The notes under the pieces: model-generated
The model's database searches: none
What the model saw: the letters and a program-made list of their open reading frames with translations, nothing else
Told to the model about the DNA's origin: nothing
In this document: piece by piece, positions 17,527 through 60,832 of the stretch
How positions within the stretch are numbered: the stretch's first letter is position 1
Layout of the letters: each line of letters starts with the position of its first letter
DNA from: Paenibacillus woosongensis
GTDB taxonomy: Bacteria; Bacillota; Bacilli; Paenibacillales; Paenibacillaceae
Assembly (NCBI RefSeq): GCF_009725165.1
Contig: NZ_WNZW01000002.1
Span: 434,001 to 498,000, forward strand
Length of the DNA: 64,000 bases
Direction of reading: 5' to 3'
Program-made: the position numbers and the translations under genes

Positions 17527-17543
17527 AAAAACTTGTTGCAGTG

Positions 17544-17963
17544 ATGAAAGTTTGCCATAAGCCGGGTTCTGTACCGTTCGCGGTAATCGGGAACTACCCT
17601 CCCGCTAGTAAGTGACAATCATCTATCTAGGCCGTACATTACTGCACGGCTCCAGCGACCAACCTAGACGCGCTTCGGGCGAAAGCTGCCTGTGCCCGCA
17701 GGCGCAAGCTGCGTCTCATTAGGTCTTGCTCCAGGTGGGGTTTACCAGGAACGAAGTCACCAGCGTTCCTCGGGGTCTCTTACACCTCGGTTCCATCCTT
17801 GCCTGTGCACGCCTTGCGGCGGCCATCGGCGGTCCGTTTCTGTGGCACTATCCTTCGGCTCGCGCCGACTGGACATTATCCAGCACCCTGCCCTTTGGAG
17901 CCCGGACTTTCCTCCCGCGGCTAATAGCCGCCGGCGATTGTCTGTCAAACTTTCGAAGGCAAC
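17544..17963 (-). ncRNA. rnpB: RNase P RNA, A-type
   Basis: The catalytic RNA that matures tRNA 5' ends. Universal parts are visible on the minus strand: GAGGAAAGTCCGGGCTCC, GGTAAACCCCACC, AGATAGATGATTG and ACAGAACCCGGCTTAT. GAAAGTTTG near the 5' end pairs with CAAACTTTC near the 3' end to form P1. The arrangement (GGGTGCTGGATAA, ACCTGGAGCAAGACC, ending CCCGGCTTAT) follows the ancestral A type seen in E. coli rather than the B type of B. subtilis. Ends are estimated from P1 and the promoter. Confidence 0.95.
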
Positions 17964-58264: not shown

Positions 58265-58720
58265 ATGTTCAAGAAAATGACGGCGCTCGTGATGGTATTC
58301 ACTTTATTGTTTGCTTTCGCCTCTGCGGATTTCGCGGACGCGCGGCGCGGCGGTGGTTTTAAATCCGGGCCACGCAGTTACACGACAACACCAAAGAAAT
58401 CAAGCAACGTCAATAAGTCGGATTCCAACACGACCAACAAATCGACTGCAACTCCAGGCGCTACGAATAATAGAACCGGATTTTTCGGCGGTGGCAGCTT
58501 CATGAAAGGCATGATGGTCGGCGGTTTGGCCGGACTTCTGTTCGGCGGACTGTTCGGGGGCATGGGCTTTTTCGGCGAGCTGCTGGGGCTCGCAGTCAAC
58601 TTGATTGCCATTTACCTGATCGTAATGGTGGCGGTTGCCCTGTTCCGCAGGTTTAAGAAGCCTCAGGTGTATCAAGGCCCGCGTCATGACGACCATGACA
58701 ATCGCGGAGGAAGATTTTAA
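58265..58720 (+). CDS. Secreted/membrane Gly-rich protein, 151 residues
   Basis: There is a signal peptide (residues 1-25, cleavage after ASADFADA), then a Ser/Thr/Asn/Lys linker. A Gly/Met/Phe-rich region 'GGSFMKGMMVGGLAGLLFGGLFGG' (about 77-100) and a membrane helix (about 105-125) follow, with a charged tail ending HDDHDNRGGRF. The layout recalls the N-terminal part of bacterial Tim44-like membrane proteins without the Tim44 domain. It is followed three bases later by the DUF2653 gene, so the two form an operon. Confidence 0.75.
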   Translation: MFKKMTALVMVFTLLFAFASADFADARRGGGFKSGPRSYTTTPKKSSNVNKSDSNTTNKSTATPGATNNRTGFFGGGSFMKGMMVGGLAGLLFGGLFGGMGFFGELLGLAVNLIAIYLIVMVAVALFRRFKKPQVYQGPRHDDHDNRGGRF

Positions 58721-58723
58721 GTT

Positions 58724-59002
58724 ATGATTCTAAGCATGGATGAAATCATCAACGCCATTTGTATTCATACAGCCGAACGTACCGGCTTGCGGCCAACAGA
58801 CATCCAAGTGGAGCTGAGCTGGGATGAAGATACAGGTTATACCGGCGAAGTCTGGGCTAACGGGCGCAGCCGTTACCTGATCGAATTGAATATTATAGAA
58901 GCGATTATCCAGTATGTGTACAAGGAATATGGTATTCGGGCTTTCAAAGACGATATTACCCTGGAGCTGGATGAAGAAATTACAGCGTCCATAAGGCAGT
59001 AA
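58724..59002 (+). CDS. YxcD family protein (DUF2653)
   Basis: The 92-residue protein has 'MDEIINAICIHTAERTGLRPTDIQVELSWDEDTG' and 'LIELNIIEAIIQYVYKEYG', the DUF2653/YxcD pattern. It is soluble and acidic. The ATG at 58724 is used here; the ATG at 58736 (MDEII) is also possible. Function unknown. It is coupled to the preceding secreted-protein gene. Confidence 0.88.
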   Translation: MILSMDEIINAICIHTAERTGLRPTDIQVELSWDEDTGYTGEVWANGRSRYLIELNIIEAIIQYVYKEYGIRAFKDDITLELDEEITASIRQ

Positions 59003-59132: not shown

Positions 59133-60248
59133 TTAAGACTGATCTGCCCGCTTGCTTCCCAACAAGAAATTAAGCTGCTCCAGCAGGCTGCTGCCCCCGG
59201 TTAAGGAGATCGAGCCGATCTTCTCGCAAATCTTCTCCAGGAACTCAAGCTCTTTCAAACGGTACAGCGTCTCGTTCTCATCCATCAGCTTGGCTGTATT
59301 GAGCAGGCTGCGTGTCGATGCCGTTTCCTCACGGCGGGTAATGAGGTTGGCTTGCGCTTTCTTTTCGGCTAAGAGAACGGTATTCAAAATATCTCTGATA
59401 TCCCCCGGCAGGATGATATCCTTCACCCCGGCTGATATGAAACGGACGCCATACTCCTGTTCCTTCTCCTGAAGGCGCGCCAGCACGAAAGCGGCAATTT
59501 CCTGCTTCGTTCTAAGCAGATCATCGAGCTTAAAGGCTCCGATATATTCACGCAATATCAATTGCAGCTGGATATAAATCTGCTCCTCGAAGGATTTGAT
59601 AGCCAGAACTTGCAGCGGATGAATGACCTTGTATTGGCAAACGAAGTTCAGCCTTAGCGTAACCTTATCCTCCGTCATCATTTCCTGCCCCGTCATATCC
59701 AACTGCTGTTGCCGTAAATCGACCTTCTGCAGCGACACCGCCGTCGGCCCTCTCCAGAAATAATACTTCCCGGGCGCAAGCTCCCTTTGCATGACATGGT
59801 TGTAATATAGTATACCTGCTTCATGCTCTGCTACTTCCAGCATATGGTAATAGCCATGCAGTTTCGGCAAAACAACGGGATCGACCTCGGCCGGCAGCTC
59901 CGGATTGCGAATATCGACATGAACGAAGCTATGCTTCTTCAGAACGTTCCAAAAAGCGTATGTTCCCGGCTTAAGAAGCCCGCTGAACCGGCCATCCTCG
60001 TAATGCAGCACATATTCGTGATCCATCACCTGGACGACCTCTAGCTCCCGCTTGAGTATGTCGTCATGCATGAACAGCTGCAAATCCTGGCCATCTACTT
60101 CAAACGGCATGGCTGTATCGACAACGATGATATTGCTCTCCGTAAACGGGGACAGACGGTACGTACCCGGGTGCAGCATTTTTTCATAGTTCCCCTGCTT
60201 GAACAGCAAGCCGCGCTTACCCTTATGTATCGCAATTTTTTTCAGCAT
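59133..60248 (-). CDS. Slipin family SPFH-domain protein
   Basis: The 371-residue protein opens with repeats of a short beta unit ('GKRGLLFKQGNYEKMLHPGTYRL', then 'ALHYEDGRFSGLLKPGTYAFW'-like and 'EHEAGILYYNHVMQRELAPGKYYFW'). An SPFH/band-7 domain follows (about 165-300: 'MTEDKVTLRLNFVCQYKV', 'EKEQEYGVRFISAGVKDIILPGDI'), then a coiled-coil tail. It lacks the usual N-terminal membrane hairpin. Slipins of this type occur in operons linked to RNA repair and stress in other bacteria. The ATG has GGAGGAAGAATGAG upstream, and a CGGCGG/CCGCCG hairpin precedes it (60283-60267). A tRNA-like RNA lies upstream on the same strand. Confidence 0.85.
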   Translation of the reverse strand: MLKKIAIHKGKRGLLFKQGNYEKMLHPGTYRLSPFTESNIIVVDTAMPFEVDGQDLQLFMHDDILKRELEVVQVMDHEYVLHYEDGRFSGLLKPGTYAFWNVLKKHSFVHVDIRNPELPAEVDPVVLPKLHGYYHMLEVAEHEAGILYYNHVMQRELAPGKYYFWRGPTAVSLQKVDLRQQQLDMTGQEMMTEDKVTLRLNFVCQYKVIHPLQVLAIKSFEEQIYIQLQLILREYIGAFKLDDLLRTKQEIAAFVLARLQEKEQEYGVRFISAGVKDIILPGDIRDILNTVLLAEKKAQANLITRREETASTRSLLNTAKLMDENETLYRLKELEFLEKICEKIGSISLTGGSSLLEQLNFLLGSKRADQS

Positions 60249-60283: not shown

Positions 60284-60479
60284 ATTTATGGCCTCTTGCA
60301 GAGGCATCCTCCTGCCGCATCAACGGAGCTCTGTTTAAGAAATGCCGGCCGCCTGCGTCCCGCCGAAGCATCCATGAGCTTACCGCAAGACTCGTTTGCC
60401 TTCTTCCGGTCTGCCCGTTTCTCCTTCATGGGCAGCAATCAGCTAGCAATTTCGGTATCCACAAAGCTGCAAAGCATCT

Positions 60480-60690
60480 GCTGCAGTGTGCATAACAAGC
60501 CACCGAGAACCCTCCACCAGGCCATCATCTGTACCTTTGTCTCTCGATTAAAAGTCGAGCGCTCTACCACTGAGCTAATCCTTCTCTAAGGATAAGGGAT
60601 TCGAACCCTTGCATTGGAGATTTCATGCCTCTGACAATACAGCATGCCAAGCATAGATGGTATGCCTGCACTGCGGAATGATCGGACATC
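60480..60690 (-). ncRNA. Circularly permuted tRNA-like RNA (Y-RNA/YrlA-like candidate)
   Basis: Reading the minus strand: T arm AAGGG-TTCGAAT-CCCTT (60610-60594), acceptor 3' strand ATCCTT, cap AGAG, acceptor 5' strand AAGGAT (60593-60578), then TA. Next come the D arm GCTC-AGTGGTA-GAGC (60575-60561), G, and anticodon arm CTCGA-CTTTTAA-TCGAG (60559-60543, anticodon UUU). All arms pair perfectly, but the 3' half of a tRNA comes first and no CCA end exists. The module is closed by a helix (60624-60615 with 60516-60507, 9 of 10). An outer stem of CCATC, GCATA and GCAGTG segments (60656-60674) pairs with 60483-60504, interrupted by bulges. This resembles tRNA-mimicking bacterial Y RNAs. Exact ends are unknown. 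Confidence 0.75.
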
Positions 60691-60800
60691 CCAGCCTGGG
60701 TAAAGCCAGCTGTGCATGAACTCATAGCTATCATCGCTTATTATGGAAAGAACGAACATGGCGAAAGTATTACGAACCGGGAATTTCTTCTCTGAAAAAG

Positions 60801-60832
60801 AAAAAAACCGACGTCTTGATGACGTCGGTCGG
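60801..60832 (-). terminator. Terminator after dnaJ
   Basis: The stem CCGACGTC/GACGTCGG with a five-base loop is followed by TTTTTTTC on the minus strand. Confidence 0.9.

What the first reader, a model, noticed from the sequence alone, without database searches (positions are those of the whole stretch)
60480..60690. A circularly permuted tRNA-like RNA with capped acceptor stem
Seen: perfect T, acceptor, D and anticodon arms with tRNA loop sequences (TTCGAAT, AGTGGTA, CTTTTAA) and the correct TA and G linkers. They are in the order T arm, acceptor, D arm, anticodon arm. The acceptor strands are joined by AGAG, so it cannot carry a CCA end as it stands. The module sits at the tip of two further helices, including one of 9/10 pairs. 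Known: YrlA-type bacterial Y RNAs contain a tRNA-mimicking module on a Ro60-binding stem. Inference: this is such an RNA, or a related free-standing class, in a Bacillales genome without a neighbouring Rsr gene.
Basis: partly seen in the sequence, partly recalled or inferred. Interest (0 to 1): 0.87.

Follow-up and report, generated by a model that had tools for sequence, protein, structure and literature searches.

The report
Permuted tRNA-like leader of slipin operons
A stretch of RNA about 420 bases long, which carries a shape copied from transfer RNA but with its arms in a rotated order, sits in front of one particular gene in many bacteria and keeps company with their RNA-repair genes; it matches no entry of the public RNA library at full score and looks like a new relative of the bacterial Y RNAs.

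Summary
The four tRNA arms in the order T, capped acceptor, D, anticodon are really there (window 60543-60610, minus strand). They are one domain of a ~420-nt structured leader (about 60725-60300) of a slipin (SPFH) gene. A covariance model finds it in 123 of 394 family genomes at 45 bits or more; slipin sequence follows in 110 of 110 fetched loci, once as a remnant. Seeded from slipin proteins, the RNA lies upstream in 79 of 80 titled loci at E<0.001 (68 at 36 bits or more), from Bacilli to Spirochaetes; 9 of 80 carry two permuted modules. T, acceptor and anticodon stems covary; the anticodon itself varies. It is not a Y RNA by our tests: below the YrlA cut-off, no Ro60 gene here. But its promoter motif is shared with Ro60-linked YrlA and RlaP genes and tracks a WYL regulator (18 of 18 genomes), and in some Clostridia the order is WYL, RNA, slipin, RtcB. 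Most likely an RNA-repair RNP component paired with slipin; a cis-regulatory leader is the chief rival. No transcript or binding data.

The parts
60753..60775 (-). promoter-associated motif TCGTAATACTTTCGCCATGTTCG, probable site of the WYL regulator
   Evidence: exact copy upstream of Rsr-linked YrlA in G005, G010, G025, G061; <=3 mismatches in 20 of 39 genus genomes; co-occurs with the WYL regulator. That the WYL protein binds it is inference.
60728..60739 (-). block AAGCGATGATAG, 13 nt after the motif, probable -10 region
   Evidence: AGCGAT in 9 of 9 genus homologues, the rest with few substitutions; the sigma-70 consensus scan found no site
60806..60830 (-). terminator-like hairpin after the upstream dnaJ gene
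   Evidence: 10-bp stem, T run; shuffles of the region give 0.7 such sites on average
60300..60725 (-). whole structured leader RNA (limits approximate)
   Evidence: covarying, mostly paired columns lie between 60718 and 60291, the outermost ones weak (ranks 83 and 91); no terminator-like site between it and slipin
60624..60718 (-). 5' domain: helix P1 (60703-60698 with 60643-60637) and hairpins P2 (60691-60687/60680-60676) and P3 (60663-60660/60656-60653)
60594..60610 (-). T arm, loop TTCGAAT
   Evidence: covariation ranks 1, 10, 20; T-loop pattern TTC[AG]A in 108 of 110
60578..60593 (-). acceptor stem capped by AGAG
   Evidence: covariation ranks 7, 11 and 86; five pairs standard in 93-100% of weighted sequences, the sixth (60588/60583) in only 25%
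60561..60575 (-). D arm, loop AGTGGTA
   Evidence: stem absent from a subclade; TGG[TC] within 25 nt after the acceptor in 104 of 108 (no control run for this count)
60543..60559 (-). anticodon arm, loop CTTTTAA
   Evidence: changes on both sides in 5 of 5 pairs (helix 3); triplet and loop length vary
60449..60512 (-). 3' domain, 5' strand of the long rod; holds hairpin 60503-60488 and the conserved GGATACCG (60453-60460)
   Evidence: covariation with 60303-60343
60303..60343 (-). 3' domain, 3' strand of the long rod
59133..60248 (-). slipin: 371 aa, three SPFH1-like beta repeats then the SPFH domain, no transmembrane segment by hydropathy
   Evidence: PF01145, AF2 models, fold searches, hydropathy

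Best explanation
Shown by comparison: window 60300-60725 (minus) encodes a conserved ~420-nt structured RNA. One domain is a circularly permuted, capped tRNA mimic that keeps the T-loop and D-loop sequences of the tRNA elbow but not a fixed anticodon. It lies directly upstream of, and on the strand of, a slipin (SPFH) gene in nearly every genome checked, and it shares a promoter motif and a WYL regulator with RNA-repair genes (RlaP and RtcB in the own genome; YrlA-Ro60 and Hen1 in relatives). Inferred: on RNA damage the WYL proteins switch on the regulon; the RNA is made together with slipin and acts as the RNA part of an RNP. Slipin multimers supply a ring or cage (as other SPFH proteins do), and the elbow mimic docks factors that recognise tRNA elbows (damaged tRNA, its nuclease, PNPase or the RtcB/RlaP machinery). 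This is the job that Y RNA does for Ro60, with slipin in place of Ro60.
For: RNA class: 123 of 394 family genomes at >=45 bits; 88 of 246 order genomes at >=50 bits; 13 of 299 class genomes at E<=1e-10. Covariation: 16 of the 20 strongest pairs are standard in >=80% of weighted sequences against 6.4% of random column pairs; 154 cells with changes on both sides against 26 in shuffles, 0 of 500 as high. Pairing with slipin: sequence in 110 of 110 loci, two of them incomplete; 122 of 123 genomes, the exception holding a 75-aa remnant at the site; 18 of 20 further slipin upstream regions hold the RNA at E<=1e-7; 79 of 80 titled loci at E<0.001. Strict T-arm plus capped-acceptor module in 64 of 80 leaders against 1, 0 and 1 of 80 in three controls. 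Regulon: full-length WYL regulator in 18 of 39 genus genomes, all 18 with the motif, 2 of the other 21 with it (Fisher p 3e-9). Own genome: WYL gene, motif (3 mismatches), RlaP and RtcB in one cluster. G032: WYL divergent from RNA-slipin-RlaP-two unknown ORFs-RtcB. 35 of 80 titled loci have RtcB, RlaP or Hen1 within the fetched flanks. Parallel: YrlA lies between the same motif and rsr in five genus genomes.
Against: No transcript, processing or binding data. The RNA is always directly upstream of slipin and no terminator was found between them, as a cis-regulatory leader would have it. Nothing shows that slipin binds RNA. None of RtcB, RlaP and Hen1 is within the fetched flanks of 45 of 80 titled loci. 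The motif is not found at up to 6 mismatches in 14 of 110 family loci, and two genus genomes have it without a full-length WYL gene. The D stem and the anticodon loop decay in parts of the family, so whatever binds does not need the whole tRNA shape.
Confidence: 0.5

Rival explanations
1. Cis-regulatory leader: the tRNA mimic senses a tRNA-directed activity (RNase P or tRNase Z, an anticodon nuclease, the RtcB machinery, or competition by damaged tRNA) and this changes slipin expression, for example through cleavage in the capped acceptor loop or refolding of the rod that ends ~55 nt before the start codon.
For: Constant position upstream of slipin and a narrow spacing (GGATACCG to slipin start: median 193 nt, IQR 186-209, n 109); no terminator-like site between; the covarying rod ends shortly before the start codon.
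Against: YrlA has the same arrangement (motif, RNA, rsr) and is described as a tether in a Ro60-PNPase complex, that is, acting in trans (PMC8394870, passages); RlaP and RtcB of the own genome stand under the same motif with no room for this RNA; tandem modules and ~420 nt are more than a simple switch needs; no obvious sequestering of the ribosome-binding site (by eye).
Confidence: 0.35
2. It is a YrlA Y RNA that has lost or left its Ro60 partner.
For: YrlA model matches T arm, acceptor and D arm (30.4 bits); module 1 of three two-module leaders matches the whole YrlA model, best 42.4 bits in Pelosinus; promoter motif shared with Rsr-linked YrlA.
Against: Below the gathering score in each of six slipin leaders scanned, although the Rsr-linked Paenibacillus YrlA are below it too; anticodon arm on the other side of the module than in Rsr-linked YrlA; 106 of 123 RNA genomes lack TROVE while the RNA is conserved; the YrlA match in the window leaves out the basal stem.
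Confidence: 0.08
3. A circularly permuted tRNA gene that is processed to a working tRNA-Lys.
For: All tRNA arms and linkers present; permuted tRNA genes exist in other organisms (PMC3978253, start of abstract in the listing).
Against: Anticodon triplet differs between close relatives (TTT in the window, GTT in G011) and the loop is irregular or shorter in others; D stem missing in a clade; the short cap leaves no room for CCA; three other places in the same genome match the D-anticodon part, presumably ordinary tRNA genes (not run through a tRNA finder).
Confidence: 0.02
4. Rearranged tRNA remnant or chance.
For: Single-sequence fold energy is not unusual; the anticodon stem does not vary in nine genus sequences and the covariation there is thin.
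Against: Compensatory changes in the wider family, deep conservation and near-perfect linkage to slipin.
Confidence: 0.01

Closest known systems
YrlA bacterial Y RNA (Rfam RF02553; rsr-yrlBA-rtcBA operon of Salmonella)
   Same: T arm, capped acceptor and D arm in this order, a circularly permuted tRNA mimic (PMC11472068 and PMC8394870, passages); located in an RNA-repair operon with RtcB (PMC7790460, passages); in Paenibacillus under the same promoter motif
   Different: about 420 nt instead of 90-150 nt (length from PMC8394870, passage); anticodon arm after the D arm as in tRNA, whereas Rsr-linked Paenibacillus YrlA have one before the T arm; partner gene slipin instead of rsr; long extra 5' and 3' domains; sometimes two modules
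RNA repair operons (RtcB, with RtcA and RtcR in Salmonella; RlaP, Hen1, KptA in other bacteria)
   Same: RtcB and RlaP beside the RNA-slipin pair or under the same motif
   Different: WYL regulator instead of RtcR; slipin and its leader RNA as components. An earlier mention of slipin in unread papers cannot be excluded.
Anabaena TrcR regulon
   Same: rtcB and a slipin gene stand in one table of genes changed in the trcR study (PMC10272220, passages)
   Different: different regulator; whether that slipin has an RNA leader was not tested
Vault particle (MVP, TEP1, vPARP, vault RNA)
   Same: SPFH protein with N-terminal beta repeats and a noncoding RNA; TROVE proteins in the same regulon of relatives (that TEP1 has a TROVE domain is recalled)
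   Different: three repeats instead of nine (nine: PMC13347060, passages); weak fold match for the repeats alone; no evidence of a particle; likeness of the RNAs not tested
Circularly permuted tRNA genes of algae and archaea (details recalled)
   Same: tRNA parts in rotated order
   Different: here no conserved anticodon, no room for CCA, found as a gene leader

Membership tests
YrlA / bacterial Y RNA | permuted T-capped acceptor-D module | tested here: met
YrlA / bacterial Y RNA | RF02553 gathering score (69 bits) | tested here: not met
   30.4 bits for the window; 29.9-42.4 bits in four of five other leaders scanned, no match in the fifth (L328) at E<=0.1. The Rsr-linked Paenibacillus YrlA also stay below it (41-45 bits), so this test alone is weak.
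YrlA / bacterial Y RNA | basal stem formed by the 5' and 3' ends that binds Ro60 | tested here: inconclusive
   not found in the window: the drawn closing helices are not conserved and the match covers model positions 30-81 only; but module 1 of L357, L369 and L374 matches positions 1-114
YrlA / bacterial Y RNA | Ro60/Rsr (TROVE) gene in the genome | tested here: not met
   0 matches in G000, 99.7% complete; 106 of 123 RNA genomes without
YrlA / bacterial Y RNA | binding to Ro60 or PNPase | not testable with these tools
   needs biochemistry
RNA-repair operon component | shared promoter motif or gene cluster with RtcB, RlaP, Hen1 | tested here: met
Functional tRNA gene | detected by tRNA finders, conserved anticodon, free acceptor end | tested here: not met
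   ARAGORN none in the window and in 24 slipin loci; anticodon varies; acceptor capped. RF00005 just reaches its cut-off, 29.0 of 29 bits.
Vault-like protein | N-terminal MVP repeats followed by the SPFH shoulder | tested here: inconclusive
   full model aligned to MVP 324-672, Z 12.3, rmsd 7.8, 206 aligned; repeats alone Z about 4 to MVP and 5-6 to the SPFH1 part of prohibitin, erlin and HflK

The most novel reading that the evidence does not exclude
A deeply conserved bacterial RNP in which a soluble SPFH protein with tandem SPFH1-like repeats forms a ring or vault-like cage, paired with its own ~420-nt tRNA-mimicking RNA and devoted to tRNA repair or decay: a slipin counterpart of the Ro60/Y-RNA machine, and a possible prokaryotic analogue of the vault, which also unites an SPFH cage, a TROVE protein and a small RNA.
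Probability: 0.2. Interest if true: 0.97.

Novelty: new variant of a known kind. Interest (0 to 1): 0.87.

Why it matters
It extends permuted tRNA mimicry from Ro60-bound Y RNAs to a large RNA class tied to slipins, in Bacilli, Clostridia, Negativicutes and Spirochaetes. It gives this group of SPFH proteins a likely setting (RNA repair) and names a regulator, a promoter motif and partner genes, so the open question of what a tRNA-shaped RNA does among RNA-repair genes can be tested in cultivable Paenibacillus and Ruminiclostridium.

Tried and rejected
A mutually exclusive switch between a local hairpin and the long rod was considered because one column pairs with two partners (ranks 8 and 50); it was not tested further. 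The N-terminal repeats of slipin show no firm family: Pfam gives weak Band_7 matches and scattered low-scoring others, the PDB sequence search nothing below E 0.008. RNA and TROVE are not strictly exclusive at family level (17 genomes have both, 24.4 expected, p 0.056), although none of the nine RNA genomes of the genus has TROVE. Of the 38 slipin genomes without an R1 hit of 45 bits I fetched 20 and left 18 unchecked, among them genomes with weaker R1 hits, one with a partial slipin (G035) and five with a more diverged slipin (G311, G313, G315, G316, G318); of the 20, two (L288, L305) have no convincing RNA. A strict regex for the module misses diverged leaders (16 of 80; 15 of 20, where the model does find most). 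A permissive hairpin scan had a high background for the acceptor and anticodon hairpins (39% and 57% in shuffles) and is not used as evidence. Of the 80 titled loci, the lowest RNA scores (18-30 bits) are no better than tRNA-like background in a genome-wide search and count only because of their place before slipin. The protein called the WYL partner has weak or no Pfam support, though one copy matches a PADLOC WYL model. Slipin relatives in viral contigs: 1 locus, 35% identity, not followed. Literature: no paper on a slipin-associated RNA was seen in the listings of searches (held library only; slipin was a search term in 28, 38, 75, 93 and 99). Chen 2014 (Y RNAs), Wang 2018 (YrlA structure) and Burroughs and Aravind 2016 (RNA repair) are not held and were not read, so an earlier mention there cannot be excluded.

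Full report
Observation. On the minus strand, window 60610-60543 holds a T arm, an acceptor stem closed by AGAG, a D arm and an anticodon arm, with the tRNA linkers TA and G. The isolated stretch folds into exactly these arms. The fold energy is not unusual, for the module (z -0.85) or for 60450-60720 (z -0.26), so the case rests on comparison. Rfam matches YrlA over T arm, acceptor and D arm at 30.4 bits (cut-off 69) and tRNA at 29.0 bits (cut-off 29). ARAGORN finds no tRNA in the window.

Two kinds of permuted RNA in the genus. A pattern for a T loop followed closely by a D arm, run over 40 genus genomes, gave mostly what read as tandem tRNA genes, and two kinds of capped modules. The first kind stands next to a TROVE (Rsr) gene in exactly the 5 of 39 genomes that have TROVE; these score 41-45 bits against YrlA over the whole model and carry an anticodon-like arm before the T arm. 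The second kind is ours, with the anticodon arm after the D arm, in genomes without TROVE.

A shared promoter motif. Both kinds are preceded by TCGTAATACTTTCGCCATGTTCG and, after a spacer, AGCGATGATAG or a variant of it. With up to 3 mismatches the motif occurs in 20 of 39 genus genomes; the reversed-pattern control rings once in all. Other copies stand before RlaP and Hen1-type genes (recognised by likeness to proteins scanned), before other genes, and before five diverged relatives of our RNA. A WYL-domain regulator has full-length orthologues in 18 of 39 genomes; all 18 have the motif and only 2 of the other 21 do (Fisher p 3e-9; these genomes are related, so p overstates). The gene lies divergently beside the RNA in G032, G021, G026 and G024, beside YrlA in G010, G025 and G016, and beside the RlaP site in the own genome (coordinates).

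Size of the class. Model R1 (nine sequences) reaches 45 bits or more in 123 of 394 family genomes; at about 38 bits and below, matches at tRNA clusters set in. Model R2 (100 sequences) reaches 50 bits or more in 88 of 246 order genomes and E<=1e-10 in 13 of 299 class genomes, 8 of these outside the family. Slipin followed in 10 of 10 order loci and 7 of 7 class loci looked at, 5 of them outside the family. I fetched 110 of the 123 family loci (30, 80). tblastn finds slipin sequence in 110 of 110; in 109 its start lies 127-949 nt (median 193) after the conserved GGATACCG. L155 keeps only a 75-aa remnant, and the best match in L125 covers 162 of 371 residues. The promoter motif is found at up to 6 mismatches in 96 of the 110. 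Seen from the protein, slipin (E<=1e-50) is in 160 of 394 genomes and in 122 of the 123 RNA genomes. Of the 38 slipin genomes without an R1 hit of 45 bits I fetched 20; 18 have an R2 hit at E<=1e-7 upstream of slipin. The 80 include Paenibacillus, Ammoniphilus, Saccharibacillus, Seinonella, Kroppenstedtia, Shimazuella, Acetivibrio, Ruminiclostridium, Petroclostridium, Herbivorax, Pelosinus and two Spirochaetes MAGs; the single miss is a Sporomusa locus. A strict T-arm plus capped-acceptor test finds the module in 64 of 80 leaders, against 1 (reversed), 0 (shuffled) and 1 (inside the slipin gene) of 80; nine leaders have two modules, as reading them shows.

Structure. In the 100-row CM alignment A4, 94.4% of cells are paired, 18 of 20 pairs show a change on both sides (11 of 13 in T, acceptor and anticodon stems) and 154 cells do (26 in shuffles, 0 of 500 as high); that alignment is fitted to the model, so it leans towards the structure. 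Nine genus sequences alone gave thin covariation. Independent MAFFT alignments with a mutual-information test (110 sequences; 102 sequences) put the T stem, acceptor, P1, P2, P3 and a long 3' rod among the strongest pairs; 16 of the first 20 are standard in at least 80% of weighted sequences, against 6.4% for random column pairs. The anticodon stem covaries as well (ranks 43 and 59). The RNA runs from about 60725 to about 60300, ~55 nt before the slipin start. T-loop TTC[AG]A is kept in 108 of 110 and TGG[TC] after the acceptor in 104 of 108, while the anticodon, the anticodon loop length and in one clade the D stem are not. What is kept is the sequence of the tRNA elbow.

Setting. In the own genome RlaP and RtcB lie in tandem beside the WYL gene and a copy of the motif (3 mismatches), on another contig. 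In G032 one cluster runs RNA, slipin, RlaP, two unknown ORFs, RtcB, with WYL divergent. In Petroclostridium and Ruminiclostridium the order is WYL gene, a partner protein without Pfam match, RNA with two modules, slipin, RtcB. Within the flanks (at most 2.5 kb), 35 of 80 titled loci have RtcB (26), RlaP (14) or Hen1 (1); 29 have the WYL gene, 32 counting its partner protein. TROVE is in 78 of 394 family genomes; 17 of the 123 RNA genomes have it, 24 expected, so 106 do without. At E<=0.1 Rfam reports in five further slipin loci only YrlA, tRNA and tmRNA matches, each below its cut-off, and one snoRNA model.

Slipin. Pfam Band_7. No window of 19 residues is hydrophobic enough for a membrane segment (maximum 0.97). 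The AF2 model (pLDDT 75.6, pTM 0.53) has three beta repeats of about 45 residues, then the SPFH domain and helices; the repeats alone model at pLDDT 91. The SPFH domain matches stomatin at Z 15-16. In six of the ten MVP rows the match starts at the first repeat and runs into the SPFH domain (Z 10.8-12.3, rmsd 7.1-8.1), and no other row there does so; the repeats alone resemble SPFH1 at Z 5-6 and MVP repeats at about 4. The vault likeness is therefore a lead only.

Mechanism. Shown: a conserved RNA, a protein partner, a co-occurring regulator and an RNA-repair setting. Inferred: function as the RNA of a slipin RNP. YrlA stands in the same position relative to motif and protein gene, and it is a circularly permuted tRNA mimic that tethers Ro60 to PNPase and sits in an RNA-repair operon (PMC8394870, PMC11472068 and PMC7790460, passages read). 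A cis-acting leader is the strongest rival. I put the RNP reading at 0.5 and the leader reading at 0.35. That the module would be seen by RNase P, TruB or PNPase is inference from its shape and from YrlA.

Novelty. The permuted, capped tRNA mimic is a known kind (YrlA). Its use in a ~420-nt slipin-linked RNA, with the anticodon arm after the D arm and sometimes in tandem, has no Rfam 15 family of its own in the scans made and was not seen in the literature searches named under Tried and rejected.

Noticed in passing
L094, L102, L115, L118, L119, L120 (downstream of the motif): A second unannotated leader under the same motif: two tandem elements (AGGCTA ... CCTTCCTTCT ... TTAG ... TTCC) in front of a protein of about 420-460 aa that was not scanned for families; no Rfam match at E<=1.
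   Followed up: partly
L086-L090: Rsr-linked YrlA RNAs of Paenibacillus carry a tRNA-like anticodon arm before the T arm, with compensated stem changes by eye, so the whole tRNA may be mimicked in another permutation; G016 has two such RNAs 6.9 kb apart, one before an ORF that looks like a Hen1 N-terminus and one before rsr.
   Followed up: partly
L350, L353, L357, L358, L360, L364, L365, L369, L374: Leaders with two permuted modules in tandem; module 1 of L357, L369 and L374 matches YrlA over the whole model, a possible evolutionary link.
   Followed up: partly
window 17543-17953 (-): RNase P RNA class A, 272 bits.
   Followed up: no
window 58265-59002 (+): Two small genes convergent with slipin: a 151-aa protein without Pfam match and a DUF2653 protein.
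   Followed up: no
L389 2707-4117 (-): Two proteins without Pfam match (199 and 280 aa) between RlaP and RtcB in the G032 cluster.
   Followed up: no
L169 and L172: Leaders whose T loop has decayed while acceptor, D-loop and anticodon parts remain.
   Followed up: no
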